The translations under genes were made by a program, and so were the position numbers. A stretch of 64,000 nucleotides of DNA from Tribonema minus (taxonomy: Eukaryota > Sar > Xanthophyceae > Tribonematales > Tribonemataceae): contig JAFCMP010000042.1 of NCBI GenBank assembly GCA_017506865.1, positions 1 through 64,000 on the forward strand, read 5' to 3'. Shown here piece by piece: positions 6,398 through 55,492 of this stretch. Position 1 is the stretch's first letter, and every line of letters starts with the position of its first letter. The notes below the pieces were generated by a model. The model saw only the letters and a list, made by a program, of their open reading frames with translations, searched no databases and was not told the DNA's origin.

Positions 6398-6426
6398 AGC
6401 TTTGAAAGGCGACTTTGAGGCGCGAG

Positions 6427-6457
<31 letters not shown>

Positions 6458-12805: not shown

Positions 12806-12819
12806 AAGTACTACCCTGA
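12806..12819 (+). repeat. Target-site duplication, right copy
   Basis: AAGTACTACCCTGA, identical to 7232-7245. It directly follows the A-rich 3' end of the retrotransposon. Confidence 0.85.
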
Positions 12820-29759: not shown

Positions 29760-32700
29760 ATGACGAACTCCGGTGGCGCAGCTCTGCTGGCCTGCATGTG
29801 CCTGTGCTGGTTGAATTCAGCGCCTTCGGCAGACGCCTTTACTCCTGGTGCATCAGCCTTCCTGCAGTCGAGGTCAGTGCTTTTGGCTCATTGCACTTCA
29901 ACTGCACCTGACAGCCGCGCACTATATACGATTACCGCACCACTGTGAATGGCATGCTTGCGGACGACCAGAGGTGCTTTTGTGAGATCGGGAAATGAAT
30001 TTGCTGAGTTGACACTTGTTGACACCTGAAACTATAGGTTCAAGATGACACTGGAACGGCCTCCATAACACGGAGGATCTCAACAGCTAGCTGAGAATTG
30101 CCATGAAGCTGCTTGTTTTCAATTATAGCTGCATGCCCTGTGCTGTCTTGCAATGCAGCTTGAGCATACATTTTTTTTTTTGCCGTCGCCAAGCGTCACA
30201 CGGTTGCGCACAAGTTGCATGTAATGCCTGTGCTGTTTTGCAGCAGCAGTGTGCAGCTTGTGGTTGCTCAAATCGCCCTCATGACTCAGCTTCTTGCCAT
30301 TTGCTCATGTCTTTTGCGTATGGTGTGCGCAGGAGCGGCCATGTCGCTGCACGTAGCAGTTATGCTCGACCAACGATGTCGCTGCGGGTGTCTGATGATT
30401 TCGAGGTCATCCAGGTGCGACTTCGGTGCTTTCAATTTGAACATACTTCTTGAAGTACAATTTAGCAGCCACCACTTGCCCAAAGTGTTTTAGCTTCATG
30501 AATTCAGTCACTGCGTTTTCAGTGCATGCGGGCTGTCAATACGATGGACATCTTGCGCATCAGCTTTAGGATGGTCTGTGCCCTGTACAATGACAGCTAA
30601 CAAATGCACACATGCTGCCACGGAGCCATCATACGTATACATGCATCTATTGAAATGTCAGCATGACTTGTTGAAAATCTGATGGTTGGTTGGCATGCAT
30701 CCGCAGGTCCCCCCCAAGTCACATGCTCGTAAATATGTGCATGACTCGTGGCCAATTGCTGCAGCAGCGGCGACCACGGTTATTGGTGGAAGGCACTTGC
30801 AGCTAACCATCCCTTGTCACCTAGAGCTCTACGACCTTTTGATTCGTTTTCATATGCATGACATTCCATGCTTGCCGTGTCACTGTCTGCGCGCGCGCAT
30901 CGCAGGACGCACCCCCCGTGAATGGAAGGCGCAGCATAATGGATGAGCTGGACAGCCTGTTGAATGAGGCGTCAGGTGCGCGCCCCTCTTGATGTCATGA
31001 ATTCATGCGCATGCACCGCTGCAATTCATGAAACTGTTGAATGAGGCGTCAGGTGCGCGCCCCTCTTGATGTCATGAATTCATGCGCATGCACCGCCGCA
31101 ATTCATGAAACTGTTTAATGAGGCGTCAGGTGCGCGCCTCTCGTGAGCTCGTGAATTCATGCGCATGCGCCGCCACAATTCATGAAACCGGCAGCGTGTA
31201 TTGTCTTTGAGTTTGTGCGTTTTCGTGGGTTTCCTCAATTACGATCAGCACGCCCTCTGCTTGGCTTTTGTGGGCATGCACCCTTGCGTAGGAAAAACGG
31301 ACTCAGGGCCTTGATGTTTGGGAGGCTGTGCCTCTGCGTTGAGAATTTGGAGGTCTTCAGCCTCTGCTTTACTGCACACAGCATGAGTGTCTGGTTATAC
31401 AGTGGATTATGTGTACCTGTACCGAAGGCGCGCATATCATTTCTTTGATGCATACTTCCATTACTGTGCATATCCTACACTATGTGCACAAGTGATTTAC
31501 GCCTATGACCTTGGTAATGTTGAAGTTCGTGCTTTGGCAGCCTCTGCTTTGTTACAGCAGCAGACCTTGTCGAGTATGGAGAGCTCTCAGCAGCTGAAAC
31601 ATTGTCAAAGCCACACCGTCAAACTGAGTCATGCCAACGAGTCCTTTCAGCACCATTTCACTGTTGACGACTGGCTGATGCGCTGCTGTTGATTACTTAC
31701 TATTGTCTCTCTCACTTGACTTTTCGTGTTTGTATAGGTGACGCGCCTTTGGCCGACATCCTGCCGCCGCCGAGGCGCGCAGCCAGGTAAAGTCAATCAC
31801 TAGTATTGCCATTTCATGATGTTGAAGTTAAGTTGCTCTCTAATCTGCCTGCCGCATAAGTTGAAGTTGTTTCATGTCAGGTCCGACGAGCAGCGTCTCT
31901 TTTGCTACATTGAATCACTCTGCATCGATAAAGATCAAGCACAGAGTTGTTATGTGCTACGCACCAACGCAGGTCACGTCACAGAGCTACTTAGTTCACA
32001 TATCCTTCAACTGCCAGCTTGTGGCCTGTTGCAGGCACTCATTTTCTGTGTTCTGAACTCGCATAATCCTGGCATCACCATGTGTGTGTACTGCTACAGG
32101 AGCGAGTGGCAGGGGTCTGGGGAAAGGGAGAGGAGCAGCTTTGGCGCCAACGGTGAGACTGGCGCTTAGAGTCTACAGCGGCAGAGGTTGTGGCTGCATG
32201 CAGTTTCATGATCAAACTACGGTTCTTGCAGGAGTGGTGGCCAAGAAAAACCTTTATTTTGCTTGAGGGGCAAAAAACGGTTTTAAAAACCCTGGCAAAG
32301 TACCCATGTTGACAAGGGTCATAATTGACTTAGAAAGCCATACCAAGGTGGCAGCCTTGCGTATGCTGTGTCTGTGCTCACCAGCAGATGCCGTGAAAAG
32401 GGACAGTTTATTGCAATTTACAGTCTCGAGATAGGGATTCATAGTGAACGCAAATCATCTTGTGCTCGCCAGGAATCCCGCAAAGTGATTGTTTTGGTGT
32501 TTGTGCGCATCAGTTCGTCATCAGATGCGGGCCAGTTGCGCATGTTTTGCATCCAGGAAGCCATGAGCACGATTCACCCTGTTACGCCAGTTGTGTGCTG
32601 CCGGCAGTGAATGTCTTCCGGTAACTGTAACTGCCGTAACCGTACAGCGTGCAAACGGCACTGAGCGTGTAACTGCCATATGCTTCAACAGTCACGTCCG

Positions 32701-35700
32701 TCTTGCCTCACATGTTCCAGCTCAATGTCATGCTTCTGCGCCTGCAGTCTCAATCCTGCTCTGTCATATGTAATACACTATGTATGCCATATTGCAGGGG
32801 GCGGGCGCGGCGCTGGCGACCGCGGCTATGACAGGGGGTCTGACAGGGGTTCCGACAGGGGGTATGGCAGGGGGTCCGAAGGGGGGTATGAGAGGGGGGA
32901 GCGGGGCCCACCCAGGGGGCGGAGCGCTGTGTTGGATGCCGGAGAGAAGCTGGTGGTGGACAGCGATGCGGAGAAGGTGGCGGTGGAGGGCAAGGACGTT
33001 GATCCTAAGGCAAGTCACTCCTTGAACTGGAGGTTGTCATTTCGAATGAATGGCCACAGGGATGTCGATTCGAAGGCAAGTCACTTTTTGTACTGTGGTA
33101 ATCACTTGCGTGAACACGGTGTCGACGTGCCGGAAGTGTATGTAGTACGAGAGGATGGCGGGGGAGGGCAAGGACGTTGATCCTAAGGCAAGTCACTCCT
33201 TGAACTTTGGTTGTCACTTTAGTTGAACCACCACGACTAATGATGTCAGCGTGGTTTGAGAAGTGTAGTTGAGAATGTGGCAGTGGAGGGCGTAACAAGG
33301 CAAGTCACTTTCTGAACTGTGGTCGTCACTTTGGATGAATGGCCGCAACACAATGTTTACTTGTCAGAAAGCTGGTCAAGGATAGCGATGCGGAGAAGGT
33401 GACGGTGGAGGGCAAGGACGTTGGCCCCCCCAAGGCAAGTCACTCCTTGAACTTGGGGGTCATCACTTTTGGATGAATGGCCTCAAGGCCGTTGATTCCC
33501 AGGCAAGTCACACTTGGAACTGTTGTCATCACTTGTGGTGAATGGCCACAACTCAATGCCAATGTGCTGGAAGTAGTGTTTGAGAAGGTGGCAGTGGAGG
33601 GCAAGGACGACGTCAACGTGCTGGGATCTCTGTTAGTGCATTGCCACAACACGATGTCAATGTGCCGGAAATGTAGTTTGAGAAAATGGCGGTGGAGGCA
33701 AGGATGTTGATCCTTAAGCAAGTCACTCTGCAAACTTGAGGTCATCACTTTGAATGCATGGCCACAAGGATGTTGATCCCGAAGCAAGTCTCTCGTTGAA
33801 CCTGAGGCCATCAATTGGGGGTGAATCGCCACAACGCGATTGCAACTTGCCAGAAAGTTTGTCAGCGCTGCTGTTCCAGGGAATGATGCGATTATGAGTG
33901 GATTCACCTATGACGGACGGACGGACGGGGGGGGGGGGGGGGGGGGGGGAAGGGGAGTGGTGTATGCAGAGCCAGGCGACGTGTACTGGAAAGGGCAGTT
34001 TTGCGCCGCTTTTCAATGAATGGCACGGTCGCACTACTGTAGCTTCGCCAATGTACACCACAGGACAGTGCAGGAGAGCCATCAGCACTCGATGATCACG
34101 TGTGTTAACAATGTCACTACAGAACAGTACAAGAGCGCCCTCAGCACTGGACGGACCTTGGGAACGTTTGTCTTGTGGTTGGATTCATGAATTTCAGGGT
34201 AACTAGGGTTAGGGTAAGCTTGTGGCAGCTGCAACCTGCTTCTTTACTTGGTGCTGTTTTCTGAAAACAACTACTTCATTGAAGTATCAGAGGGGTGGCA
34301 CCAGGGCCGGGTTGGCACCATGTGAGTCATATGGCAACAGCCGATGTGGTTAGAAACAGTCCGCTCAGCTGCATGTGTGGTACCTGCGCTGTTGCAGGTG
34401 GTCAAGTATGCATTTGTCGAAGGAATGACGCTTTGACACACGTGTTTACATGACAACAACTCTCGTCACACTCCAACAGCGCTCGACACTGCATATCCTG
34501 CAGGATGATCATTGTGCACCATAATCGCATACACTGGAAGTGCCTCGACGGTGGTCCTTACAATCTCAGAAAGGCACACTGTACATTCATATCTCCACAT
34601 GAATGCTCTCACTTCTTCAAGTTGTACAGTTGAAGCGAACAACTTTGAAAGATCACAGTTTCCTTGGCACTGCGCTGCGCGCAGACTCCAAGTAAGTAAA
34701 CTTGAAGTATAATGTTTTTCCTTCGCACTGCGTTGCGCGCAGACTATCGATGTGCTCTTGGGCAAGGGCATCACGCACTTCACGCCCGTGCAAGCGGTGA
34801 CCTACGAGCACATCCTGGCAGGCAGGGACATGATTGCCAAGAGCAGAACCGGTGAGCCTTCTCCAGAATTTTTATTCTAAGTAGAAGTTCTTTGATAGTT
34901 TTGTCCTGGTACCTGTGCTGCTACCTCTATGACTCACTTAGACCATCCACAGACTGCCATGCGAGCACATCCTGGCGGGCAGGGACATGATCGCCAAGAG
35001 CAGAACCGGTGTGCCCCCAAATTTCAGAACATGCTACTTCCAGCATGCGTACGCGTCCCCGCTGGTAATCGCTGTCCTCTGTGCATTGCGAGGCTGGGAG
35101 TCCTTCTGTTGACTCGCGCGGTGTAGTTGCCGCAGCAGAGGCGATCCACTCACCATCCGCTGCCGCGGTGCGCCCACCTGGTCCTACTTCAAGTACTTGA
35201 AGTACGTACCGCAGCGACGGCCTGTCTGGTCACCCCGAGCCCGCCATGCGGCCTGCACTTGCAGCGCCTGCGGTGCGGAGCGCTAGTTCAACTTGAACTA
35301 CAAGGTGTTGTGCCATTCACATCGGCATCATTGACAAGCCACACCTGGCTGAACGGTGTCTGGCTGCATGCGCTGACGACGCTGACGTGTCTCTCTGCCT
35401 GCGCATCCGCGCCCTCTCCCCGAATGCAGCTTCCACGCCAGCTGTGTGCGCATCACCTGGCAGCGCTTCCGACATCAATGTGTACTAGTCAAAAACAGTG
35501 CTCGCAATGTAGTCAGGCTCGTGAGCTCTCAACAAGGCCTGGCTGTGTGCACTGACGACGCTGCCGTGCCTCTGTGCGCTGCGTAACGTAAGCCGCTGTT
35601 CTCTGCTACCAGCACCCACTCAAGCGCTAATCTGCTGCCGTCTGCTGCCACCTTCCTTTGCTGCTGCGGAGGCAGCACCATTTTTCTTGCACATGTTCAG

Positions 35701-38700
35701 AAGTACGCGCATCTCCTAAACAGTCATGCATACCTACGGTAGGCACTGCTACAGTTCTTCCGCGTTTGAAGTTGAGCCTCGTGAGCACTGCTGCTGTTCG
35801 CTGCCGCAGGCACCGGCAAGACTATCGCGTTCGGGCTCCCCGTCATTCAGCACCTGGCCAGGTTTGCGGACGACGCAGACTCGCGCAGCAGCAAAAGGTA
35901 TGCTGCCCCACTGATGCGTACATACCACTTGGCCACAAACACATACTCCAAAGTACATGAATGGCAATGCAAGATGCACGCACTGTCATACGGCACCTGG
36001 CCAAGTGGGCAGCAAAGAATACTGCTCGGCCATGAAACACTGCGGGTGCGCGAGCAAGAGAGCGCTACTCGTGACTCGGTGACGCGAGTGATTCATTGGG
36101 TAAGCACTCCTCGCTGCCTGCTGATAGCTGCCTGCTGATACGTGCTGCACTGTGCTGCTGTCCTTGCGTCGTGCGCAGGGGCCGCAGCCCGCGCTTCCTG
36201 GTGGTGTGCCCCACGCGCGAACTGGCCAAGCAGGTGACGATTAATCATTCATTCATGATTCATTCATGAACTTCATTCATGATTCAGGCAGCCCCCACTT
36301 CCTGGTGGTTTGCCTCTTACGCAAACTGGCCAAGCAGGTGACGATCGTTCATGATCGAGGTGGCGGTATATCGCGCACGCTGCATGCGCTGCCTTTACAG
36401 GCAGTTCCGGTCAACAATGCTTTCTTCAACTGCATCACAAACTCCTGTGTGCAACTGACTTGTAACTGACATGCGAGGCATGAGGCGCCACATGCGCCAG
36501 GCAGCAGACGCGTTCGCGCAGCCAGCGCCTCAGCAATGCTTTCTTCAACTTCATCTTGAATGGCGTTGACTCTGCTGAGTGCAACTGACGTGCAACTGAC
36601 ATACCAGGCATGAGGCGCTTCGTGCATCAGGCAGCAATAGCGCCGCCAGCTTTGCCGCGCAGGGCATCCGCGATGCTTTGTTCAACTTCAGTGTCAGTGG
36701 TGTTGACGCTCCATTATGTAACCGCCGCGTAACTGCCCGCAACAGGTGGCGGACGAGCTCGCGCAGCTCGCGCAGCCCCACGGCATGAGCGTGGAGTGCT
36801 TCTACGGCGGCGCTTCGTATGGGCCGCAGGAGAGCGCTCTGAGGTGAGTGAGTGAGTGAGTGAGTGAGTGAGTGAGTGAGTCTCAGACAGTACCGTGAAG
36901 CGCGGCATGAACGTGCAGTGCCTCTACGGCAGCGCCTCGTACGGGCCGCAGGAGAGCGCTCTAAGGTCAGAAAGTGAGTCAGTGAGCGTGTGAGTCATCG
37001 CGTGAGTGAGTGAGTCTCAAACGAACCGTGAAACGCGGCATGAGCGTGGAGTACTGCTACAGCGGCGCCTCGTACGGACCGCAGGAGAGTGCTCTGAGGC
37101 ACGTGAGTGAGCGAGTGAGTGAGTCAAATAAATGTGTCTCGTTGCCTGGATGCTGATGCTCGGGAGCCGCACACGCCAGTGCAGTCACGCTCGTGCCAGA
37201 GGTGAAGCAGACAAGCCGACTCAAAGCAGAGCATGATATGCTAGACGAGGGCTCGTGATGCTGAAGAGTGGATTCTATTGAACCAATGGCGTGAGCCCGA
37301 AAAGAAAGGCTTAGGGTAGGTATGTATGTCACCACTGGGGGTACGGTGGTACTGCAGCTCTGTCAATGAGTGAGAATGTGAGTAGTTGAATGTTTCTTGT
37401 TGCCTAGATGCTTGTGCTTGAGAGCAGTGCCTGGCAATGCAGTCACGTGATGATCTCTGTTAGTAGAGCCGCTCATGGCGGAGGTGGCGCGTGACTGCGA
37501 GTCGCGCGGGGGGTGGGTATTCTCCTGTATGCATACATACCCATAGTGCTGATTCACGTCATCTGCTCACCAAACGTTTCGTTGCGCTGACTGCTGCAGG
37601 CGCGGGGTAGACTTGCTGCTGGACACCGCTTCGTCCAACTATGTATGTTTGTTATGCTGTTATTAAGGCAAGTCAACTGTTTTTTTTGTATGCGCTGTTT
37701 TCACTGAAAAGGCAAGTCAGTCGCTGTCCGCGAATTTACAACTGACTCGTCGCACCAACTGTCCACAGGCGCGGTGTAGACGTGGTGGTGGGGACCCCGG
37801 GGCGTCTGATTGACCACGTGCAGAAGGGCAACCTGGACCTCTCCGAGCTCAAGCACGCAGGTGAGCTGGTGATGAAGGGGTTGAAGTTCTCAAATTGAAG
37901 GTCAAATTTGAATTTGAAGTAATGAACAGCACATGAATGTTCACATCGAGGCCCTATACTACATCCACTTCCGACCTCAAGCACACAGGTGAACTGCTGA
38001 TGAGGGAGTTGAAGTTATCAATAGGCTGTGGAGTGTACCATGTATTTGTAGGTATCCTCCTGCGCGCAACGCAGCCACACCATAGTCTTGTTGGTGGCCG
38101 CATCTGTGCTGACAGGGTGGACGAATGAGCACTCTTTGAAGGCAGTGTCACGCTGCACAACTTAGGCGATTGCAGGGGTACTGCTGCGCGCAACTTGGTC
38201 AAAGCATGTCTCATCGGCTCGTTCCAGCTTGGGTCGTGACGGCAGTGCGCAACAGTGTCAGATGACATTTCCTACACAACTGCGCGCGTATGCACTGCTT
38301 TTACGCTACGCACCTTGCAGTACGCAGTATTTGCGTTCTGCACGGTTAGATAGTGGAACGACGCCATCCACTTGAACTTGTGTGGTGACTCTCAGTTGGC
38401 ACAAGAGCGCTTGCACAGACGCCATGCATCACCCCGCTGCTGCATACGTGTTGCATCTTTGCATCTCTCCATGGTGCATGCGCGTGCATACATACCACAT
38501 ACACTGAGCTCGGGAAGGTCTTGCCGCCTTTGTATTGGTGTGCATTCCCGCACACTAGCCGCAGCAGCAATTTGCGTTTCAGGTGCAGAGGTACATTATG
38601 CCCGGGCATACACTTCCCCAGAATCTGCCAAATTAGGCAAGGAAGCCTTTGAGCGCAATCTGCGCCTTCAAGAGGAAGCTGTGCCTCCAAGAGCTCTCTA

Positions 38701-41700
38701 GGCTGTGCCTTCACAAGCAATCTCGGACAATTTGCGAACCCCTTCCTGATGTACCAGGAATGCTCCATATTCCTACAACGTACATGACCTCCACACCGCT
38801 ACTCACCTTTTTGCATGCGCAGTCCTGCACCGGGAATGCTCCATATTCCTACAAGATGCATGACCCTATACCCCTTCTTTTTGTGCACAGTTCTGGACGA
38901 GGCCGACGAGATGCTCAACATGGGGTTTGCGGACGCCATTGAGGAGTTGTTTGCCAGGTGAGTGTGCGCATTTGCTTGAAAAGTGCCGTATTGTAAGCTA
39001 CGGCAGTAGCAGCTGCGTGGTGTTACAACCAGCAGCATGCACCGTGCTGCCTCCTGCCGAATGTTGCTAGTTCCGTAGTTCCACATCAACACCGTACATA
39101 TCTAGGGTTAGGGTTTTGAGCATGCACGATGTCTTGAAAGCTCATGCTGGTTTCTCGCTCTCACGCTGTGTGCTCGCACGCACAGCGTCAACATACCAGA
39201 GTGCCAGCATCGTTACATCCAGCATCAGAAGTACCGGCATGCACAATGCCAAGCACTGACCTCTTGTTTGCGCAGCAAATGGAGTGCCAGCATTGTACAT
39301 TCAACATCAGAAGTACCGGCTTGCATGATGCCAAAAGCCCATCTCTTGTTCGCACAGCGAACGGAGTGCCAGCATTGTACATCCAACATCAGAAGTAGCG
39401 GCATGCACACTGCCAAAGCTCATATCTTCTTCGCAAAGAACGGAGTGCCAGCATTGTAGTATTAACATTAGAAGTACCTGCATGCACAATGCCAAAAGTT
39501 CACCTCTTGTTTGCTCGCTGTACTCATGTGCAGGGTCAACATACCGGAGTGCCAGGTGCTCCTCTTCAGCGCCACCGTGCCCGACTGGGTCAGGCGCATA
39601 TCCGCCGCATACCTCAAGAACCCCCTCCAGGTATGGTGCAGTTTGTAGTCGCCTTTGACAGCGACGACGCAGTGTGCAGACAGCGCTCTCGTCTTGTAAG
39701 TCTGGGTATCTGAGTCAGGCGCATATCCGCCGCCAGGGATACTACAGTACATGAAAACGAATCAAAAGATCGTAGAGCTCTAGGTGACAAGGGATGGTCA
39801 GCCGCAAGTGCCTTGTGTAGTCGGCGACCACGGTCATTCGTGGAAGACACCGGCGGCTAGCCACACCTTGTCACCTACAGCTCTACGATCTTTCGGAATC
39901 GTTCCCGTGTAGTCTCCGTTGAAAGCGACGACATGACGTGCAGCAAACGCACTTGTGTTGTAAGTCTGGGCATCTGCTGGCAGGCACGCGCCCCATCACC
40001 AGTGCTCAGCGGCGGAAGAAGCAACGGCTTGAAGGGCGGCATGCATGGCGCAAATGAATTATGTGAGGCACAGTACGGGGCTATTGGTGTCAGTGCTCAA
40101 AGGCCTGGGGAAAACAGCCTCAATGAAAGTTGCCAGAACGTGTCTGCAGCTTATAGGAGCAACTGGCATTGGACGCCACGGCGTGGCTCCGAAATGCGCC
40201 ATGCTGATACTTCAGCATCTCCAGAACCCCCCATGCGTAGCGCCGACTGCGCCGGCGCGTCTCCCCCGTGTACTGCACATGTACTGCACCTGTTGCTCAT
40301 CTGTACTGCATATGTACCGCGCCTGTGCTGCATCTATTGCACAACTCATGTGCAGCGCCGGCGCGTCTCCCGTGTACTGCATCTGTACTGCACCTGTTGC
40401 TCATCTGCACTGCATCTGTACCAAACCTGCACTGCAACTATTGCACAACCCTTTATCGCACAACCCATGTGCAGCGCTGACGTGCCTCCCGTGTACAGCA
40501 TCTGTACTGCATCTGTTGCTCATCCGTACTGTATCTGTACCGCACCTGTACTGCATCTGTTGCTCATCTGCCCTGCATCTGTACCGCACCTGTACTGCAT
40601 CCACTGCTCAGGTGGATGCGGTGGGCACCACGGACAACCGCCTCGCTACGACGGTGAAGCACCTGGCCATCGAGACGCCCAGCCGCAACAGGGCACACAT
40701 GCTTGAGGTATGTTGTACTTGTGCAGAAATAAGTGCTTCTAGTGCATATTTTGTGCTTGACCTTCAGGGCACACATGCTGGAGGTATGCATGTACTTTTT
40801 TTTTTTGCTTGGGGTGTGAAAAAGCCCAGATGGTAAATGAACAGGTTGCTACCGGAATCTACATGTGTCTTGTGAAAACGCAGAAGAGTCTCAGTGCGCA
40901 TCGACGATCGCTTCTGAACGACATCGCCAAACGACATGTGTGTACTTGTATAGTAATGCTCGAGGCATGTAGTATGCCTGCTCACCGCTTTCGTGTGCCT
41001 GTGTGCATACGCAAACGTGCACCAACAGCGTGCCCCCATCCCACAGTTAGGGTCAGGGTCAGGGTAGAGACGGCTGACCTTGGCAAGCATGACACACCTT
41101 GCGGCATCTGACACCCCCCTAGCGGAGGCAGGTTATTCCACTGCGAGGATCGTTGCGGAGCACAGACACCTGAGCACTGCTGCCCTGCACTGGGTAGGGG
41201 TTACGGTTAGGGTTAGAGACAGCTGGCCTTGGCACATAGGACACATGCCGCTGCGTGAGAGCCCGTAACCGAGGTGTAGCTGGCCCCACTGCAAGTCCTT
41301 CAGCTCAGCAATAGAGCCAAGAGTCCGCAGCTCAGTGGGGGCACACGCGCAGCATAGCTCAGCTAAATTGCACGCTGTAGGGCGCTGCTCACTTCCAATC
41401 AAACAGTTTACGTCTGCGTCGCATTCAGCATGGTGGCTGCGTGCTGTGTGCCGTGATGTCCTGGACGCTGAGCACTGACACCTGAGCGCTGCTCCCTGCT
41501 TGCTAATGCAGGACGTCATTGCCGTGTATGGCAAGGGCTCGCGCGCCATCGTCTTTACGCAGACCAAGCGTGAGTGCGACGAGCTGGCTGCCGGCAACGC
41601 CTTTAAGACCCTGTCCTCACAGGTGCGCTTGTTTAAAAGTTGGGATGCATGTATTATTCATCAATGAATGGTCATTCATGAATCAACACTGATTTTGATA

Positions 41701-44700: not shown

Positions 44701-47700
44701 CATTCCGCTCTGCAGCTCTCAGTGTGTGTAGTACTTCAGCGTAAATGGGTGGTATTGTCGAGCGTCAGCACCAGAGCCCCTTATAACAGTGGTCCTGTGG
44801 GGGGCCCTCGCCGTTGCCATGCACCCACTGCCCGTACTTTCTGCGCATCGCTGCTCATGATGTCAAATGCCTGCGTGAATTCCTGCACTTCATGAGCTGC
44901 CACGCTGTTGAGCTCAGAGTCAGGGCTGGGGGTTCGATAAAATCTAAAATATAGCTGCCCCCCTGCACCGTCAACGGCTCAGGATGGCGGAGTACCTGGA
45001 TAAGGCAGCTTACTGCACTGCGCGTGCTGTGCTCGTGATCTGAAGTCCTGAACTTTGTGCGGTGCTGCTTCAAAGCGGCAGCGGCGCAACGTGGCCCGCA
45101 TGGAATTTCAAGAATTCATCGTCTTCAGTTCACGTTTTCGTGTTGTTGTGTTTTGGCTCGAGTGCTCTCAGCACGTGTTGCCACGTTGGCGCAAGCACTG
45201 GCAGTACGACAGTGCTATCGGCTTACCCGGCTATTGTGCTGTTCTGCGTTTTTTGCGGCGGCAGATCGAGAAGGCGATCGGCAAGGGCTTCAAGTTTGAG
45301 CGGGCAGCTGTGCCCAGCGCAACGCAGGTATGCCAACAGAAGAGACTTGACAGCTATCTAGCCACCCATGTGACACAGAGTCATCTTCTGCTTCCTCTGC
45401 GGCCTCTCAAGCTGATGTACAGTGGTACTTCGAGTTGTAATCTTCAAAGTGTACCAACGCAGGTACGCCCACTGAAGGGAGTTGACAGCAAACGAAGTAC
45501 GTACCACTGTACTGCTGTCCGATACGCTTGGCGTGCAGTATGCGTGGTCGTATCATGCAGCGTTGAACTGCAGCAACAAAGGGCGGCCTGAGTAACCTGG
45601 TTCCACATGCACCCGTGGCATGTACTTGCGTGGTCGTATCATGCAGCGTTGAACTTCAGCAACAAAGGGCGGCCTGAGTAACCTGGTTCCACATGCACCC
45701 ATGGCATGTACTACTACTTCTTGAAGTGCTAATCAGTTCATAGTCGCCATCTCAGTCATGGAGGTGGCTGGCACGGTCACGCTCAGGGCGCTCATTGACC
45801 ATCTGTGAAATCGTACTTTCAATTACCTCAAATGATCATGAGGCTCCGTTGGCTATATGTATACTTGGAAGTATAGCCGTGTCTCTGTGGCGTTGCAGGT
45901 CACAAAGGTGACGCTGAAGGCGCTGGCCACTTTATCACACCGCATGAAGTTGTTTCACAGTCAGTTTATGCGGCACCATTTGCTCAGCACGTCCAGTAAG
46001 CTGTTGATTCTGTTGGCAGGTGATGGAGGTTGCAAGCAAGGTTGCACTCAACGCCCTTGACACCTCGTCACGGCCTCCAACTGTAAGTTGTGATCGATTC
46101 GTCTGATCGATTCGTCGACACTGTTTCCTGTGTGTATTTGATGGGCGCCATTCGCTCACTACCTCACGTAACCTTATGTTCACAGGTAATGGAGGTGGCA
46201 CGCAAGGTTACCCTTGAGGCGCTCGACACCTTATATCACAGTGTAACGCTGCATTCAATTGTATTTGGCAGCGTTCACACTAACCCTAACCTGACCCCTA
46301 ACCCTACGTTCAGTTCCTACCTCACGTAACCTGACATTTGCAGGTAATGGAGGTGGCAGGCAAGGTTGCCCTTAAGGCGCTCGACACTGTCAGCGCAGAC
46401 GTCGTCCCCTTCTTCACACCGGCGGCGCGTGAGCTCCTTGCTGGTGAGTCACCTGCAAAATTACAATATGAACTTGTAGTCTCTCACTGAACTACAACTT
46501 CAAGTAGTCAGCGCAGGTGTCGTCCCCTTCTTCGCCCCGGCGGCGCGTGAGCTCCTCGGTGAGTCACCCGCATACTGTGACGTATGTACTTCAAGTAGTC
46601 CCCACTGTGAAGCATGTACTTCAAGCTCAGTGCATCATCTCCTTTTGCATGCCGGTGGTGCGCGAGCTCCTTACTGGTGAGTTGCCGCATCAGATCCTAT
46701 ATACGTACTTCAAGTTGTCCTACTTTGAAAACTCGGACCGTTTCGCGTGCATGGCGGGAATCAGAGCAGAAGCGCTACATTGTACGTGCCGCAGCGCAGC
46801 GTGTGCATATAACATGCGACGATATTATTTGCCTACCATCGCGTGCGATCGCGTGCGTGTTCTTTTTTTGCAAGTGCGGCGCCCTAACCACCTGATTGTA
46901 GACGGAACACGCAGATCGCCTGTGGCCAAAGAGGATGAACTTTGGTGCCATGCCTTTCAGGATGCAACGCTTGCAGCCCTTTAGCCACCTTTCTCAAAGA
47001 ATGATCCAACTATCACGACAGCACTGGCTGTGCAGTGGCCCTCCGGTCACCTTCCTGAAGTATATTACAAATATAGCTCCGCAATCTTGTGATTTGTTTA
47101 TGCAAATATGATAATTTCAAATAATGGCTGTGCAGTGACGCCGCGGTGGCGGCGCACGCTCGTGCTGCTGCTGATCCTCGTGGCTGATGCTGTGCCATTG
47201 GTGTTGAGCGTTGCTGCAGAGTCCCAAGCCGACGGCGCGAACCTCGACGCTGAGCAGCTTCTCGCCGCCTACCAGGCTGCAACGCTCTTAGCCCTTCAGC
47301 CACAGTTCTCACAAATAATCATCCGTCTATCCCAGCCTCAAGTTACTGTGCAGTGGCGCTGCGGTGGGTGTGCGCGTTCGCGTCGCTGATGCTCAGTACT
47401 GACGCTGCGCAATCGGTTGAGCGCTGCTGCAGAGTCTCAAGCCGACGGCGCGGAGCTCGACACGGAGCAGCTGCTCGCGCGGTGCCTCGCGGCCATCGCG
47501 CGCAAGACCGAAATCCAGCAAAGAAGCATATTAACAGGTGTGTGATGAGTGGCAAGAATGTGTACATATATTTGTACATGTATATGCATATGTTTAGAAC
47601 GATGTATGCGCAATCATCGCGGTGCCTGGCCGCCATCGCGCGCAAGACCGAGATCCACCAAAGAAGCATGTTGAAAAGGTGTGTGACAGGTGGCGAGACT

Positions 47701-50700
47701 TTATGTATCAAGTCGAACTTCTGAGTATATGTTTAGGACTTTGTGCAATCATTGCTTGCGCGGTGCCTGGCCGCCATCGCGCAAGACCGAGATCCAGCAG
47801 GGGAGCATATTGACAGGTGCGAAGTAATGGAATCATGTACCTTAATGTATGCACAATCGTCGCGTGCTTCCGGAAGCGCAGGTCACGCCGGCGCCGCGTC
47901 AAGTGAATGACGCTTCACCATATGAAGCATATTGATAGGTGCGGAATTAATTCACCTTCATGTCATATGCACAATCGTCGTGTGCTCTCAGAAGCGCAGG
48001 TCACGCCGGCGCCGCTACAGTGGGGTGACACTTTGCCTTTGACAAAGTCTTCTGTGACCCTCGCGCTGCGAACGCTCTGCTCCCGCGCTTTCCATCTTGC
48101 CTTGTGGCACTGCGCCAGGCGAGCCCGACATGGCGACAGTGCAGTACTATGTTGAGGTGGCGAGCCATAGGCTCTCAGTATCAGTATGTGGGTGTCCCAC
48201 CTTCCATGGTGGTCCTCCGAGTGCCAATAAAGCGCTGCCGTGCTGTGTTGTGCCTTGTTGCCTTGTTGCGCTACTGTAGGCGAACCCGACATGGCGACAG
48301 TCCAGATGGTCGCACACCAGCCCATGACCACGGGCGACGTGACGTTCGCCGTCAACAAGCTGGCGCGGGCAGGTGCGTGCGCGGAGCGTCTACTTGAACT
48401 TGCAGTCTGTGCATGCACTTCAACTGTGGGCCTGCATGCACCAGCCCATGACCACGGGCGACCTGACATTCGTTGCCATTAAGCTGGCGAGGGCACGTGC
48501 GTGCGCGGAGCGTCCACATTCACTTGAAGTCTGTGCATGCACTTCAACTGTTGGTCTGCAGGCATGACCAACGGCCGTGGCCTTCGCCGCTTGTACGCTT
48601 TCCAGGCGGGGCTCACATGGAGTGTCACACGCTTAGAGTATGTGCCCGCAGTTCAAGTGATTCATGCTCATCTAGTGTTGGCCTGCAGCAGGCACCTGGG
48701 TTTTGTACCAGAAAGGGAGAGACGGCGTCGCTTGCTAGAATGAAGATGACAGCGGGCGCAGAAAGAGCATGCAGCGTACGAGTCACCCCTGGTGTACAAT
48801 GGGTGTGCTGCTACGGCGACACTGGCTGCACGAGAAGGCTGCAGATGATTCAGTTCCATGAATCCGCGAAACATTCCGTATTGCACTCTCTCACAAGAAG
48901 GAACGGCATTCCAGAGGGCCGTGACTTGTGCAAGTGTTCAAATGCATTGTGACCTGACGTGAGCATCTTGCGTTGTGCTGCTGCCATCACTACACAGGAG
49001 GCGGTCCTTCGCCCAACATCGGCAAGATCGCCATTGGCAAGGACGCGCACACGGCGGTATTTGACATGACGCAGGCCGCCGCCGCTGCGCTGATCGATGT
49101 GGCCAACGACCAGGTGCATCACGTCTGTTGAAGTTGTGTGCTTGTGGGAGAGTTGAAGTCTAGTCATGAGCTTCGGGGGCTAAACTGATGTGCGTTTGTC
49201 TTCTAAAAGGTGAGGCGCGATGACTGCGCCGCTGCGCTGATCGAAGTGACCAACGACCAGGTGCGTCACAGTGTTGTTGCTGTTGAGGTTGTGTGGTTCG
49301 GTGTAATGAGGTACTTCGAAGTATATATTGCTTTGTGAGAGGTGATGCAAAATGCCTGCGCCGCTGCGCTGATCGATATTGCAAATGACAGGGTGCGTCA
49401 CGATGTGGCCGATGTTCAAGGCGCACGCTGATGCTGATAGAGGTGAAGTTCAGTCAAAAGTTTCAGAGGCCAACCTGAGGTTTGTATTTCATATGAGAGG
49501 AGACCCACGTCAAGCGCAGCCTGCGTCTGCCAAGCTTGCTTCCAGCAGCAATGTACCTGCAATGGACGTCAGTAAGGGCCAGTATTAATGCGGCAAGCAG
49601 TCATGCTCAGGCCATGCTGAGCAATTTTTCATGATGCGCATACCAAAGTCGTGGCGAGCACACTTTTTTTAGCGCCGCACTCTGCTGTGCACCCACCTCG
49701 TAGCCACCGCTGCTGTGGCACGTGACGCGCAATTCACCAACAGGCCATCATGCGCTTGAGCGACGCCGACTAACCCTCACCCTAACCCTAACTAACTCTA
49801 CCTCTAACCCTACTGTATGTATTGTGTTTTTTGCTCCAGTATAGCAGGCATGGCGCTGCACGGGCCATGTGGCTGCAATGCGTCGGTACAAACCAAAGTC
49901 GTACGTTTCCACCAGTGCAGATCTCAGCCTGCCTAAATTATCGCATGTGCAAGTCTGACTTCGCCTTCGTGTATTTGTTGACGTGTGCAGGAGTTGAAGG
50001 CCATCAAGTTCACGCTCTGCACGGAGCTGCCGGAGCTCTCAACACAGGTGCGCCACATGTTGTGTGGTCTCATTGCTTTGCACGTGAAAGTGCGCCGGTC
50101 AGTCTGCGTACAACTTCAACAACCACCACTTCGACATGACGTGCACGCCAGTTGAAGTATCACTTCAAAATCCAGATCGGTGTCGCATACTGAAGTACCT
50201 CGGTATATGATAGCAGACATGTACGCAATAGCAAGACTGCACGTTCACTCGGTGGCAGTAGCAACTGATGGCTTGACCAGCGTGGTCGGCACCGTCTGTC
50301 AGATTTGTTCCAGGCAGACACGCACCCCTGCAAGACCGCACATGCACACTCCAGAGTATGATTGGGGTGCTTCGAAGCATATACATATGTATGCGTTAGG
50401 CAGGCGAGTGCCCCTGCAAGACCACACGCAGCGCGCGATGATACGAAGCGCACACTCCTGCGTACGACTTGACCAGCCTAGTTAGCACCGTCGTGCATCA
50501 TGTTTGTCGGACAGACACACATGCCTGCAAGATATGGGTGCAGTACCCATGTCAGAGCGAGGTAGTACACCTCAGGACCTGCGGGCGTTGCACAGCTTGT
50601 ACCGCAGAAACTGTTTTTTTATCTGCAGCTGCCGGCATCGGCCCCAGCGCCTGTGACACAGCCCGTCAAGTCTGCCTGTCGATAGCTGGCCCAACAACGC

Positions 50701-52491
50701 ACATGCCATCTGATGGTAGCATTGATGCTTGTAAGCGTGCAGCTGGTGGATCATTCAAGCTCGTGTCGCGTTGGTGGCCGGATGCCATCCATGCTCTCAA
50801 TTAGGGTTAGGGTTAGGTTTAGGGCTAGGCTAACCGGCTGGTTCCCCCCCCCCCCCCCCTCTTGTGCAGGAATATGGCGGGCGGCCAAGCCGAGGAAGAT
50901 TCGATAGGGGCGGCGACAGGTGAGGCAATGCATCAAATGTGTTCATGCTCCTGCATAAAGTGACCACCAACACCATGACTTCATCAGCGCAATGCATCTC
51001 ACGACTCTGCTTGTGGACACCTGCCAGACTTCAAGTTTGAGGTGGTGTTGAACTTCGCGTGCGGCATGCGGAGTGTGGCCGGAGTGGGTGCATACGTACG
51101 TATAGTCTGCCCTCTCCTTGATACCACGCTGCGCCTTGCTCACCATGTGTACCTGGAGCCAGAGCTTCGTATGATAATCATGATGGCCATTGAAGCGAAT
51201 AAAATGATCGTAGGGCTCTAGGTGACAAGGTGTGGTTAGCCAAAATGGTCATATGCACCAGCTGCTGGCTAGCTGTGCATCGAAGCCAGTTACCTCTTGA
51301 GACTTGCTGCGCATGCTGCTGAATCAATGACGCATGAACGCAATGCGACTGGTGTCATGATTTTGTGCATGTGTGCAATCAGGCGACCGTTTGCACTCTT
51401 CGCCAGCAACCGCCGCTGGTTACTAACCTTGTGCTTCTATGTCCACCATCACTCCTTCACTGCTCATCAGGGGTTACGGCGGCCGCGGTGGCGGCGGTGG
51501 CGGCGGCGGGGGGGACTTCTATGGCGGAGGGCGCGGGGGAAGCAGGTGAGGCAAGATTGACACTGCAAAGCTGCCGAAGTACATCACGTTCAGAAGTGAT
51601 CGGCAATGCGCACTGAGACGCTTTCAAGGTGTTCACAGGACACGTGTAGATTCTGACTGCAAGCTGGACATTCATCATCTGGGCTTTGTCGCGCCCTGAG
51701 CGAGAATCAATACAAAGTTACAGTGTGGTGTCATGATGCTCTTCTCACGATGGTTCTGGACTGCACAGGCTGATTACGTACTTGAAGGATACCTACGTGT
51801 TTGAAGTGGATACAGAATTGAGCAGCGTTGAGCATCGTGCTCGGCACATGGAGGCGTGTTGAAGGCACAGCTTCAACTCGCAGTACTGTGATGGTTGCAG
51901 CAGCTTTTCCCCCATCATTGGTGTCTTGCAAGGTCCTTTGCTGTCACACACGCTTCACTCCATGTAAGAGAATTTTTGTGAGCTTCTCAGATTGCAGCGG
52001 CCGCTGCTATGCATGTGCGGCAGTTCGCTCTGCACAACAACCAACTGTTGAATTGGGCTTGCACTTCACACCAGTCACTTGAAGCAGGCAATGTAGCAGG
52101 CCTGTGCAAGGTCTGCATCACACTACAGATCCTCACTTGGACCGGAAAGGCTCCCAAGGAACCTAGGTGCAGGTGCGCAAAAAAACTGCGTGCTGTCATT
52201 GCTTTGTCACGGGCAGACCATCCTCGTCTGCACAACACGACATACCTCAACGCGTGGCATGCGTTCGATGTAAGTTTCTGCAGCTCTCTGATGCCATTTA
52301 AATCCTCTCTCCGCCATTGTTCATGCAGCTTCCGGCGCGAAGGGGGGGACCGCGGCGGCGGCTACAGGGGGTCAAGGGGGGGGGACAGCCGAGGGGGCGG
52401 CAGGGGGGGTGGCTCAGGGGGCAGGGGAGGGGGGCGCGGCGGTGGCGGCTATGGTGGCGGTGGCTACGGCGGAGGCTCAGCACCCTGGTAG
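29760..52491 (+). CDS. RH3: DEAD-box RNA helicase, plastid RH3-like, with GUCT-like domain and RGG tail; 28 exons
   Basis: ATP-dependent RNA helicase, likely for plastid intron splicing or ribosome assembly as known for RH3. Exons: 29760-29872, 30333-30414, 30906-30975, 31738-31786, 32100-32152, 32798-33009, 34743-34851, 35810-35897, 36179-36233, 36746-36843, 37769-37860, 38891-38957, 39534-39630, 40612-40707, 41512-41622, 42471-42530, 43385-43505, 44324-44400, 45265-45327, 46344-46443, 47433-47537, 48280-48372, 48998-49113, 49991-50047, 50629-50664, 50870-50919, 51471-51545, 52329-52491. All phases agree over 2508 bases (835 residues). Signal peptide then [12 protein letters not shown]-terminal RG repeats; Q-motif area GITHFTPVQ; motif I SRTGTGKT; Ia [46 protein letters not shown]; a GUCT-like region (ATVQM to VFDMTQ); Gly/Arg tail ending GGSAPW. 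Intron 6 uses a GC donor (AAG|GCAAGT). The two short exons near 50.6-50.9 kb are least certain. Confidence 0.87.
30759..30851 (-). mobile_element. Half copy of the same element family, helicase intron 2
   Basis: CTGCAGCAGCGGCGACCACG ... CCCTTGTCACCTAGAGCTCT ... GATTCG. It matches the copy at 23854 over about 93 bases on the opposite strand with few differences. Confidence 0.8.
30960..31190 (+). repeat. 77-bp tandem triplication spanning the end of helicase exon 3 and its splice donor
   Basis: Three copies start at 30960, 31037 and 31114, an exact 77-base period. Each contains TTGAATGAGGCGTCAG|GTGCGCG, that is, the last exon bases and the donor, followed by the first 60 bases of intron. The first two are almost identical; the third has more substitutions. 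Three equivalent donors are thus present in a row. Confidence 0.92.
33010..33850 (+). repeat. Decayed tandem copies of helicase exon 6 tail in intron 6
   Basis: The exon end (GAGAAGGTGGCGGTGGAGGG ... GATCCTAAG) and the following GCAAGTCACTCC recur near 33151-33205, 33383-33450, 33585-33610 and 33685-33735. Linkers of the type TGGATGAATGGCCACAA stand between them. Several retain the AAGGCAAGT donor. Confidence 0.85.
34968..35012 (+). repeat. Echo of helicase exon 7 tail
   Basis: GAGCACATCCTGGCGGGCAG and GACATGATCGCCAAGAGC, then AGAACCGGTG, repeat the end of exon 7 (34807-34854) with three substitutions and keep the donor GT. Confidence 0.9.
36289..36344 (+). repeat. Echo of helicase exon 9 tail
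   Basis: Copies CGCTTCCTGGTGGTGTGCCC through AACTGGCCAAGCAGGTGACGA of 36193-36240. The motif Ia codons are altered (ACGCGCGAA to TTACGCAAA), so it does not encode the helicase motif. Confidence 0.88.
36844..37125 (+). repeat. (GTGA)n donor microsatellite and two echoes of helicase exon 10 tail
   Basis: Directly at the exon 10 donor the intron reads as nine GTGA units (36844-36879), so the donor consensus GTGAGT is repeated. The exon tail then recurs at about 36903-36966 and 37034-37099 (GGCATGARCGTG ... GGGCCGCAGGAGAGCGCTCT), each again followed by GTGAG-rich sequence. Within the [11 protein letters not shown] stretch nearly all differences from the exon are synonymous. Confidence 0.88.
37585..38030 (+). 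repeat. Echoes of helicase exon 11 head and tail
   Basis: A head copy (GCAGGCGCGGGGTAGACTTG) lies at about 37598-37617 before the exon. A tail copy (GACCTCAAGCACACAGGTGA ACTGCTGATGA) lies at about 37974-38005 after it, including the donor and the intron words TGATGARGGRGTTGAAGTT. Confidence 0.8.
39143..39530 (+). repeat. Tandem copies of the exon 13 acceptor and head
   Basis: Four to five units of about 80 bases, each with CTCTTGTTYGC, GAGTGCCAGCATTGTACATY and AACATCAGAAGTACCGGC. The first (39183) still reads GCGTCAACATACCAGAGTGC, close to the true exon start at 39534 (GGTCAACATACCGGAGTGC). Here the duplicated unit carries the 3' splice site rather than the donor. Confidence 0.85.
39754..39905. 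mobile_element. Full inverted-repeat (MITE-like) element, helicase intron 13
   Basis: Left arm AAACGAATCAAAAGATCGTA followed by GAGCTCTAGGTGACAAGG; right arm CCTTGTCACCTACAGCTCTA followed by CGATCTTTCGGAATCG. The arms are about 60 bases with a short centre. This is the only copy in the window with both arms, so it defines the family as about 150 bp. Confidence 0.82.
40266..40611 (+). repeat. Pyrimidine-rich tandem repeat before exon 14
   Basis: Many short units of the type CTGTACTGCATCTGTTGCTCATC fill the 340 bases before the exon 14 acceptor. They give an extended polypyrimidine tract with numerous CAN|N sites. Confidence 0.85.
41702..41765 (+). repeat. Echo of helicase exon 15 tail
   Basis: GAGCCGACGAGCTGGCCGCC followed by TGCAACGCCTTCAAGACCCT and GTCTTCGCAGGTGCGC repeats 41573-41630, with the donor kept. 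Confidence 0.9.
42699..42970 (+). repeat. Two echoes of helicase exon 16 and its donor
   Basis: Copies near 42705-42745 (GTGAGGTCAGCATTGGGCAG then TTCAGAAAGTTGAGC) and 42918-42960 (GTGTGAGGTCAGTACTGGGT). In the first the exon donor AAAGGTAAG has become AAAGTTGAG, so the site is lost. Confidence 0.8.
43040..43345 (+). repeat. Tandem repeat before exon 17
   Basis: Three to four diverged units of CCGCACACGAGCTC ... CACTTTGATGCGTCGYGCCR ... GCACTGACCACG, plus a tail echo of exon 17 at about 43587-43615 (GACCCTGACATGTACGTTCA). They occupy most of intron 16's last 350 bases. Confidence 0.8.
43771..43826 (+). repeat. Interstitial telomere-like tract, 27-bp unit duplicated
   Basis: GGCCCTAACCCTAACCCTAG followed by GGATGCAT occurs twice in a row. 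It is the clearest of about ten degenerate CCCTAA/TTAGGG tracts in helicase introns; others lie near 34200, 41045, 41200, 42285, 42877, 46280, 49775 and 50805, and one near 58090 in the ankyrin gene. Confidence 0.8.
45540..45711 (+). repeat. 83-90-bp tandem duplication in helicase intron 19
   Basis: GCGTGGTCGTATCATGCAGC through AACCTGGTTCCACATGCACC occurs at about 45540-45622 and 45630-45711 with very few differences, so it is younger than most echoes here. Confidence 0.9.
45757..46250 (+). repeat. Four echoes of helicase exon 20 head
   Basis: The exon start (GTAATGGAGGTGGCAGGCAA then GGTTGCCCTTAAGGCGCTCG) is preceded by similar sequences near 45759, 45898, 46020 and 46186, most with a CAG acceptor in place. 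The one at 46186 differs by few bases and stays open for about 18 codons. Confidence 0.88.
46504..46685 (+). repeat. Two echoes of helicase exon 20 tail
   Basis: Copies at 46507-46567 (GTCAGCGCAGGTGTCGTCCC ... GAGCTCCTCGGTGAGTCACC) and about 46648-46682 (GGTGGTGCGCGAGCTCCTTA CTGGTGAG). Both keep a GTGAGT-type donor. Confidence 0.88.
47212..47945 (+). repeat. Head echo and three tail echoes of helicase exon 21
   Basis: A full-length-looking head copy starts at 47219 (AGTCCCAAGCCGACGGCGCG) before the exon at 47433. Tail copies follow near 47616-47665, 47760-47818 and 47930 (CGGTGCCTGGCCGCCATCGC, then AGACCGAGATCC and AGCATRTTGAMAGGTG). This is the densest echo cluster in the gene. Confidence 0.88.
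48108..48500 (+). repeat. Head and tail echoes of helicase exon 22
   Basis: The head copy at 48112-48148 (CAGGCGAGCCCGACATGGCG ACAGTGCAG) precedes the exon. The tail copy at 48436-48500 (CACCAGCCCATGACCACGGG CGACCTGACATTCG) follows it, and the flanking intron words (CACTTCAACTGT, GCATGCA) are duplicated too. Confidence 0.9.
49215..49400 (+). repeat. Two echoes of helicase exon 23 tail
   Basis: GCCGCTGCGCTGATCGAAGT GACCAACGACCAGGTGCGTC at 49228-49268 and a more diverged one at about 49358-49400, each ending in a donor-like GTGCGTCAC and TGTTG. Confidence 0.88.
51194..51247 (+). mobile_element. Partial copy of the inverted-repeat element family, helicase intron 26
   Basis: GCGAATAAAATGATCGTAGG followed by GCTCTAGGTGACAAGGTGTG; one arm only. 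Confidence 0.72.
51614..51717 (+). mobile_element. 5'-truncated 3' end of the RLE retrotransposon, helicase intron 27
   Basis: About 104 bases align with 12709-12806, the 3' UTR of the plus-strand element, including CATCATCTGGGCTTTGTCGC followed by GCCCTGAGCGAGAATCAATA. Only the extreme 3' end is present, as is usual for aborted target-primed reverse transcription. I could not find a target-site repeat. Confidence 0.8.
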
Positions 52492-55450: not shown

Positions 55451-55492
55451 GGGCAGCAAGGCAAATGGCGCTTGTGAGCTCTGTGTTGTCAT
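54626..55492 (-). CDS. Hypothetical protein with Cys-rich N-terminal part and acidic-Ser C-terminus (gene or 3' exon)
   Basis: Open from the ATG at 55492 for 288 residues; the frame continues upstream without another ATG. A 3' exon is possible, because a donor-like CAACAG|GTCAGT and an acceptor-like ACACAG bracket a potential 50-base intron just upstream. Near the N-terminus GGACRANPRALSKSGWF is followed by spaced cysteines (CHQ, CATKH, CPNPC), perhaps a metal site. The middle has CVAFSRCIEKLLSRAA and FREWLEAQPGF. The C-terminus contains FNLNFDLNEPA, Ser/Pro runs and a basic SSKKRAATW. I recognise no family. Selection is suggested by the duplicate at 62618-63473: there the amino acids are kept through several in-frame indels. 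It could be the last exon of the ankyrin gene upstream. Confidence 0.55.
   Translation of the reverse strand: MTTQSSQAPFALLPHLCNAAGGACRANPRALSKSGWFCHQVAVMCATKHMASCPNPCVRPTPPRPDTMAQVQPKWSSTGTGSLESFLTEALPLGLPPAGSNDSEVSAATGCSTCVAFSRCIEKLLSRAASDMQKLENSLWMPHTSGKHFGAECQGLMARFREWLEAQPGFHDTTSKPAQHSAAAGGTATKDAPSLGPMASPAAAMACSPLRAPPLLMAPEGAPDHSPYFNLNFDLNEPAAGAGAGGGLERFSSSPIPSPLASPLRDTDEEDHSGSSKKRAATWDASDH

What the first reader, a model, noticed from the sequence alone, without database searches (positions are those of the whole stretch)
29760..52491. Systematic 'exon echoes': junction-spanning tandem copies around most helicase exons
Around at least 16 of the 28 helicase exons, the neighbouring intron holds one or more diverged copies of a 30-90 base block spanning the exon-intron junction (exon tail plus donor, or acceptor plus exon head). 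Clear cases follow exons 3, 6, 7, 9, 10, 15, 16, 20, 21, 22 and 23 and precede exons 11, 13, 20, 21 and 22. They range from near-identical to barely recognisable, so the process has run for a long time and is still active. Introns may therefore grow by repeated local duplication of splice junctions, leaving decoy splice sites. I know of no named process that matches this; it differs from introner insertion, which is dispersed, not local.
Basis: partly seen in the sequence, partly recalled or inferred. Interest (0 to 1): 0.88.

Follow-up and report, generated by a model that had tools for sequence, protein, structure and literature searches.

The report
Introns lengthened by local splice-junction copies
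In the genome of a probable alga, many introns contain decaying copies of the ends of their own neighbouring exons, apparently left by small local DNA duplications that lengthen introns without changing the protein.

Summary
The echoes are real and not confined to this gene. In the 28-exon helicase, donor-spanning windows have a nearby direct copy at 14 of 27 junctions and acceptor-spanning windows at 4 of 27; the reverse-complement control gives 0 of 54. In 33 kinesin genes modelled elsewhere in the genome the figures are 27 and 28 of 114, and 54 of those 55 copies lie on the intron side. Over both sets, 62 of 155 introns carry an echo.

Echoes decay about neutrally: codon positions 1, 2 and 3 differ by 8.3, 6.7 and 17.0%, intron parts by 15.9%. 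They are therefore unlikely to be assembly artefacts or functional exons. Echo count predicts intron length: 230 bp per echo within genes, 0 of 5000 permutations.

Best reading: small local duplications, probably break repair, accepted only where the outer splice sites still work, then neutral decay. Junction-spanning events are 79 of 142 (0.56), against 0.21-0.26 simulated for uniform duplication in introns of present length. Assuming shorter introns gives 0.41-0.54, so a junction-targeted process is possible but not shown.

The parts
29760..52491 (+). 28-exon DEAD-box RNA helicase gene (DEAD, Helicase_C and GUCT domains) whose introns carry the echoes
   Evidence: Single open frame of 2496 nt over 28 exons; Pfam DEAD 2.2e-46, Helicase_C 1.2e-31, GUCT 9.8e-14. 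Exon 25 (50629-50652) is the least certain exon. The exon 16 echo (score 40) has no coordinates from a call and is not listed below.
30957..31188 (+). Exon 3 tail plus donor: 77-bp unit in three tandem copies
   Evidence: 94% identity
32947..33835 (+). Exon 6 tail plus GC donor, with several diverged copies through the 5' half of intron 6
   Evidence: many pairs, 68-96% identity; donor window score 101
34962..35015 (+). Echo of exon 7 tail plus donor (true copy 34805-34858)
   Evidence: 94.4% identity, spacing 157
36288..36345 (+). Echo of exon 9 tail plus donor (true copy 36184-36241)
   Evidence: 86% identity
36903..37126 (+). Echoes of exon 10 tail plus donor (true copy from 36781)
   Evidence: 79% identity, spacing 122, further copy at 37036
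37970..38021 (+). Echo of exon 11 tail plus donor (true copy 37842-37893)
   Evidence: 86.5% identity
39199..39514 (+). 82-bp tandem array before exon 13; its unit resembles the exon 13 acceptor and head
   Evidence: acceptor window score 40
40765..40797 (+). Echo of exon 14 tail plus donor (true copy 40689-40720)
   Evidence: 91% identity
41709..41760 (+). Echo of exon 15 tail plus donor (true copy 41577-41628)
   Evidence: 90% identity
43584..43679 (+). Echo of exon 17 tail plus donor (true copy from 43476)
   Evidence: 77% identity
45455..45489 (+). Weak echo of exon 19 tail plus donor (true copy 45320-45354)
   Evidence: 85.7% identity over 35 nt, only 8 of them exonic; donor window score only 32
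46013..46229 (+). Two echoes of the exon 20 acceptor plus head (true copy 46317-46387)
   Evidence: 82% and 89% identity
46507..46729 (+). Echoes of exon 20 tail plus donor (true copy from 46389)
   Evidence: 71% identity, spacing 118
47128..47265 (+). Echo of the exon 21 acceptor plus head (true copy 47346-47478)
   Evidence: 78% identity
47618..47819 (+). Echoes of exon 21 tail plus donor (true copy from about 47478)
   Evidence: 76-86% identity, spacing 140
48097..48144 (+). Echo of the exon 22 acceptor plus head (true copy 48258-48305)
   Evidence: 83% identity
48439..48564 (+). Echo of exon 22 tail plus donor (true copy 48315-48440)
   Evidence: 86.5% identity, spacing 124
49227..49402 (+). 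Two echoes of exon 23 tail plus donor (true copy from 49080)
   Evidence: 70-84% identity

Best explanation
Introns of this genome gain small local direct duplications (about 75-450 bp between copies, most often 110-150), probably scars of double-strand-break repair by fill-in and end joining. Duplications fall in introns and across exon-intron boundaries. Those that break an exon are lost. Those that span one splice junction survive because the outermost donor or acceptor keeps being used, so the mRNA is unchanged and the intron grows by the duplicated length. The inner copy then decays at the neutral rate, while the true exon is held by selection, so the exon part of an old copy outlasts the intron part and looks like an 'exon echo'. 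Shown here: the copies, their one-sided placement in the gene models, near-neutral decay, and the tie to intron length. Inferred: the break-repair origin, that the added length came from the duplications, and continued use of the outer splice sites in RNA.
For: Direct, not inverted. Same pattern in 33 kinesin genes modelled by spliced profile alignment. Of 148 non-redundant events, 63 are intronic, 42 are donor-spanning and 37 acceptor-spanning with the copy on the intron side; one donor-type copy lies on the exon side, one event duplicates a whole exon and 4 are other kinds. Exon-part mismatches are 102/1226, 83/1230 and 208/1221 at codon positions 1, 2 and 3, and 1049/6610 in intron parts: half rate where only the echo is free to change. 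Length grows with junction echoes, whose number of targets per intron is constant: 230 bp per echo within genes, 0 of 5000 permutations; length = 589 + 0.98 x summed spacing, R2 0.52. Telomeric 9-mers, of a kind shown in mammals to enter at breaks (PMC7215372), occur 85 times in 42 of 155 introns against 0.45 in Markov shuffles and 0 in 34.6 kb of exon; the places listed put TTAGGG arrays at the starts of contigs C2 and C3.
Against: Uniform placement in introns of present length predicts a junction fraction of only 0.21-0.26; observed 0.56, bootstrap 0.48-0.66, and 26 of 39 at 85% identity or more, which the simulations put at 0.21-0.35 or, for 300-400 bp introns, 0.43-0.58. Purely intronic events also lean to intron edges: 35 of 59 within 100 nt against 18.6 expected. 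Telomeric 9-mers are not concentrated at or between the copies. Of 18 donor echoes of 85% identity or more, 9 stop within 13 nt of the donor, and further similarity beyond the block was seen in 2 of 20 (0.6 expected by chance); the nearest simulations need an old age profile and high indel rates and still give fewer gaps (0.71 at most, observed 0.85). In the 90%-plus subset, differences are mostly at third positions (4, 5, 25 of about 167 each), more than neutral decay predicts. Longer introns might simply tolerate more echoes. Breakpoint microhomology was not tested, no reads or RNA were available, and no random sample of the genome or control species was examined.
Confidence: 0.68

Rival explanations
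1. A junction-directed process: duplications are made preferentially at exon-intron boundaries, for instance at breaks tied to transcription, R-loops, the GC step or nucleosome edges, so junctions are mutational hot spots.
For: Junction fraction 0.56 against 0.21-0.26 from uniform stationary simulation and against 0.30-0.43 after allowing for pre-duplication intron length; 26 of 39 among events of 85% identity or more. Intronic events cluster at intron edges. Exons are more GC-rich than introns, 0.645 against 0.543.
Against: Simulated introns of 300-400 bp give 0.41-0.54 without any hot spot. Detection favours exon copies. Only 5 events of 90% identity or more are intact tandem copies, 2 of them at a junction, so a clean test has no power.
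Confidence: 0.25
2. Echoes are functional: alternative or poison exon pieces and splice sites kept by selection.
For: Third-position excess in the 11 events above 90% identity; by eye, some echoes have an AG just upstream and a GT downstream; donor GT or GC kept in 39 of 42.
Against: Over all 79 events positions 1 and 2 differ at half the intron rate, as for a free copy beside a held exon. In the gapped class at 82% identity or more (32 events), codon differences are 60 synonymous and 61 replacing. Splice dinucleotides decay about as expected.
Confidence: 0.04
3. Insertions of an introner-like or other mobile element with long target duplications.
For: Block, unrelated gap, block structure in many high-identity cases.
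Against: At least 35 of 44 gap sequences match no other sampled place; 7 do, and 2 are unresolved because hit lists were cut at six rows. Only 1.4% of intron bases match another of the 20 loci compared. Spacing and gap length vary. The sample is a few hundred kb, so only abundant families would show.
Confidence: 0.02
4. Assembly artefact or chance similarity.
For: None found; reads were not available.
Against: Inverted controls near zero; divergence that depends on codon position is hard to get from mis-joined reads.
Confidence: 0.01

Closest known systems
Small tandem duplications from double-strand-break repair (CST/Pol alpha-primase fill-in, PMC8355091, passages read; 'partially tandem' duplications in rice, Vaughn and Bennetzen 2014, seen only as cited in PMC7407515)
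   Same: Short, local, direct, tandem or with a gap; adds DNA.
   Different: Known work describes genomes or induced breaks at large; an effect on splice junctions and on intron length was not seen in the passages read.
[quoted passage not shown] potato RdRp case, PMC4974935, abstract and passages read)
   Same: A local duplication crosses an intron-exon boundary and splicing absorbs it; the potato case is the nearest single example read.
   Different: There the duplication makes a new intron. Here an existing intron grows, no added intron is needed by the gene models, and the pattern recurs in 62 of 155 introns sampled.
Introners (PMC9860276, listing and two passages seen)
   Same: DNA addition tied to introns.
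   Different: Introners are dispersed copies of an element; here each copy resembles its own neighbouring exon.
Interstitial telomeric sequences from break repair (PMC7215372, abstract and passages read)
   Same: Short TTAGGG runs inside introns.
   Different: For human the paper finds intron placement compatible with random insertion; here the density is far above shuffles and zero in sampled exons, and it is not linked to the echoes at fine scale.
Tandem exon duplication (recalled, no paper read)
   Same: Exon sequence copied into the neighbouring intron.
   Different: Mostly exon ends are copied; one of 148 events has a copy block spanning a whole exon.

Membership tests
Small local tandem duplication | Copies in direct orientation and close together | tested here: met
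Small local tandem duplication | Copies adjacent, without a gap | tested here: inconclusive
   36 of 148 events have a gap of 5 nt or less; the others have gaps, partly reproduced by old age in simulation or by gapped duplication
Break-repair duplication | Microhomology or fill-in signatures at breakpoints | not tested
   Too few young intact events (5 of 142)
Intron gain by tandem duplication | A new intron is excised between the copies | not testable with these tools
   No RNA; the helicase frame closes without the echoes
Introner | Many dispersed similar copies in the genome | tested here: not met
   At least 35 of 44 gap sequences without a match elsewhere in the sample; 1.4% of intron bases match another locus
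Tandem (mutually exclusive) exon duplication | Whole exon copied and under selection | tested here: not met
   1 of 148 events with a whole exon; near-neutral codon pattern

The most novel reading that the evidence does not exclude
Exon-intron junctions are mutational hot spots: a repair process linked to transcription or splicing keeps copying the exon end and its splice site into the intron, making it a main, self-hiding engine of intron growth in this lineage.
Probability: 0.25. Interest if true: 0.82.

Novelty: new variant of a known kind. Interest (0 to 1): 0.62.

Why it matters
Why introns differ in length between and within genomes is an old question, often answered with mobile elements. 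Here detected local duplication is associated with about half of the variance in intron length in the sample (R2 0.52), and the one-sided junction copies, each of which can be roughly dated, would make growth measurable event by event. They also give a natural experiment on how the spliceosome chooses between duplicated sites: in the gene models the outer site is the one kept in nearly every case.

Tried and rejected
Block-gap-block duplication placed at random: junction fraction 0.19-0.22, exon part longer than intron part in 0.42-0.52 of high-identity cases against 0.85 observed. Random tandem duplication at steady state: 0.21-0.26, and high-identity echoes mostly gap-free, not as observed. 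Recent growth from 100-150 bp introns: 0.23-0.27. Duplication largely ended some time ago: 0.26-0.37 and 0.26-0.46 (one steady-state run there: 0.24). The one search runs with high indel rates come nearest to the sharp edges and codon rates, but at 85% identity or more they give a junction fraction of 0.22-0.35 against 26 of 39 observed, and the 0.46 run has an indel rate above what the alignments suggest (298 gaps to 1049 mismatches in intron parts). Shorter introns: 0.41-0.54. My first impression from the helicase that donors are favoured over acceptors was dropped after the kinesins. Gap sequences as an abundant repeat family: not supported. Telomeric repeats at the copy edges: no link, although introns with an event more often hold one (31 of 80 against 11 of 75, P 0.001), which intron length may explain. 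Papers: the searches listed no paper that by title and abstract start treats junction-spanning duplications as a genome-wide source of intron length; one search found no paper at all. I read passages of PMC4974935, PMC8355091, PMC9860276, PMC7407515, PMC7919458 and PMC7215372, and the abstract of PMC4974935; no paper was read whole. Subscription papers are mostly not held.

Full report
What was checked. The window lies in an unnamed 158 Mb genome of 554 contigs. The two best protein matches of the helicase N-terminal half are named Phaeothamnion and Choristocarpus, so the host is probably a stramenopile alga; that is an inference from two names. I rebuilt the gene by hand: 28 exons, 2496 nt, one terminal stop, introns of mean 749 and median 782 bp, with DEAD, Helicase_C and GUCT domains.

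The observation. Each junction was taken as a 60-base window (40 exon, 20 intron) and aligned to 1.5 kb on either side, directly and as reverse complement. At score 40 or more, donors give 14 of 27, acceptors 4 of 27, intron interiors 147 of 594, and windows outside the gene 37 of 625. The inverted controls are 0 of 54, 4 of 594 and 9 of 625. Local duplications are about six times denser in this gene than in the rest of the window: 34 events in about 22.7 kb against 10 in about 41 kb. The rest of the window is of mixed and mostly unknown content, and some stretches there (4-8 kb and 24-28 kb) are also well covered.

Beyond the gene. Kinesin motor exons were found by Pfam in the same genome, and 19 larger loci were fetched. 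With 14 smaller loci, a spliced profile aligner that I wrote gave models for 33 genes with 149 introns. For the window test I kept 114 introns of 150 bp or more, with flanking exons of 25 nt or more and a GT, GCAAG or GCGAG donor; 35 were dropped. Donor echoes: 27 of 114, all on the intron side. Acceptor echoes: 28 of 114, 27 on the intron side. Interiors: 531 of 2650. Exon interiors: 18 of 323. Inverted controls: 0, 1, 7 and 4. The copies are therefore not special to the helicase. The helicase's lean to donors is not general. No random sample of the genome was obtained.

Events. Self-alignment gave 148 non-redundant local events in the helicase and the kinesins: 63 within introns, 42 donor-spanning with the copy to the right, 37 acceptor-spanning with the copy to the left, and 6 others. 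For this step predicted introns under 100 bp were merged into exons and exons under 20 nt dropped, which leaves 155 introns of 150 bp or more, the 27 of the helicase included. The split is stable under ten filter settings, with a junction fraction of 0.54-0.60 and a gene bootstrap of 0.48-0.66. Of the 155 introns, 62 carry a junction echo (41 donor, 33 acceptor), and 22.7% of intron bases lie in detectable copies.

The copies are free to decay. In 79 junction events the exon part differs at 8.3, 6.7 and 17.0% of codon positions 1, 2 and 3, and the intron part at 15.9%. This is what is expected if the echo mutates freely and the true exon changes mainly at third positions. GT is kept in 35 of 42 donor echoes (GC in 4 more) and AG in 28 of the 35 acceptor echoes where the site could be aligned, close to neutral loss at about 7% per site. 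In the gapped class of 82% identity or more (32 events), changed codons are 60 synonymous and 61 replacing. One result does not fit: above 90% identity, 25 of 34 differences are at third positions. The group is small (11 events) and was picked after the fact. Exon parts also have fewer gaps than half the intron rate (24 in 3677 nt against 298 in 6610), which I did not explain.

Intron growth. The number of junction targets per intron is constant, so echo number need not follow length. It does: 230 bp more per echo within genes, 0 of 5000 permutations. Over 155 introns, length = 589 + 0.98 x summed spacing, R2 0.52. That regression overlaps in part with longer introns having more room for intronic events, so the junction test is the cleaner one. 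Longer introns tolerating more echoes is not excluded.

Are junctions special? Random placement of the observed alignments predicts far fewer junction events: in the helicase 17, 14 and 3 observed (intronic, donor, acceptor) against 28.5, 2.8 and 2.7; in the kinesins 46, 28 and 34 against 87.9, 10.3 and 9.8. Forward simulations of random viable duplication with neutral decay give a junction fraction of 0.21-0.26 at steady state, 0.19-0.22 with gapped duplications, 0.26-0.46 when duplication has mostly ended (one steady-state run gave 0.24), 0.23-0.27 for recent growth, and 0.41-0.54 if introns were 300-400 bp long; observed 0.56. Among events of 85% identity or more the observed fraction is 26 of 39, above each run (at most 0.58). 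By counting placements with the length before each event, expectation is 0.30, or 0.43 if the spacings of all detected events are removed, before any detection bias. Purely intronic events, which are free of the exon-conservation bias, also sit near intron edges: 35 of 59 within 100 nt against 18.6 expected. So a junction excess of roughly 1.7- to 3-fold in odds over one search is left to explain; a hot spot is possible, but introns that were shorter at the time, together with detection bias, are a fair rival. Parameters of the simulations are my choices.

Shape. Of 18 donor echoes of 85% identity or more, 9 end 5-13 nt past the donor, typically with an unrelated stretch of about 40-260 nt before the copy. 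Similarity beyond the block was seen in 2 of 20 donor cases, 0.6 expected. Steady-state tandem duplication does not give this. An old age profile with a high indel rate comes near it, because the exon part stays alignable longest. Gapped duplication or conversion of the echo by its exon are not excluded.

Mechanism. Small tandem duplications are known products of repair at staggered breaks (PMC8355091, passages read), and rice insertions were ascribed to such repair (Vaughn and Bennetzen, seen only through PMC7407515). A second hint is the load of telomeric 9-mers in introns: 85 in 42 of 155 introns, 0.45 expected by Markov shuffling, none in 34.6 kb of exon, with TTAGGG arrays at the starts of contigs C2 and C3, the only places listed. 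In mammals such runs were shown to enter at breaks (PMC7215372, abstract and passages read). They are not closer to the copies than elsewhere, so this hints at frequent breakage at most.

Verdict. Confirmed observation, with a mechanism of a known kind working at what looks like an unusual scale and leaving an unusual signature.

Noticed in passing
window 34206, 39105, 42280, 42886, 43771, 43799, 46296, 49780, 50803, 58093 and 58105; kinesin introns: Short interstitial telomeric runs (TTAGGG type) in many introns: 85 telomeric 9-mers in 42 of 155 introns, 0.45 expected, none in 34.6 kb of exon; telomere arrays at the starts of C2 and C3.
   Followed up: partly
window 33010 (exon 6 donor) and intron 6: A GC-AG intron whose GC donor, by eye, has been copied several times into its own intron; GC donors also appear in several kinesin models (26 of 176 donors), some of them probably false.
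   Followed up: no
window 7339-12696, + strand: Reading frame of 1786 aa with a reverse transcriptase domain (RVT_1, 2.1e-10), probably a retroelement; a 1711-aa frame at 1379-6511 on the other strand has no Pfam match.
   Followed up: no
window 23855-23970, 30742-30855, 39748-39903; locus L044: A dispersed repeat of about 115 bp, about 82-92% alike to the L044 copy, some copies inverted.
   Followed up: no
11 echo events of 90% identity or more: Differences from the true exon lie mostly at third codon positions (4, 5, 25), more than neutral decay predicts; unexplained and small.
   Followed up: partly
window 1-4000, 12001-20000, 52001-56000 and 60001-64000: No local duplications in these 4-kb bins, against coverage of 0.20-0.44 in the bins from 32 to 52 kb; two bins outside the helicase (4-8 kb, 24-28 kb) reach 0.20 and 0.23.
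   Followed up: no
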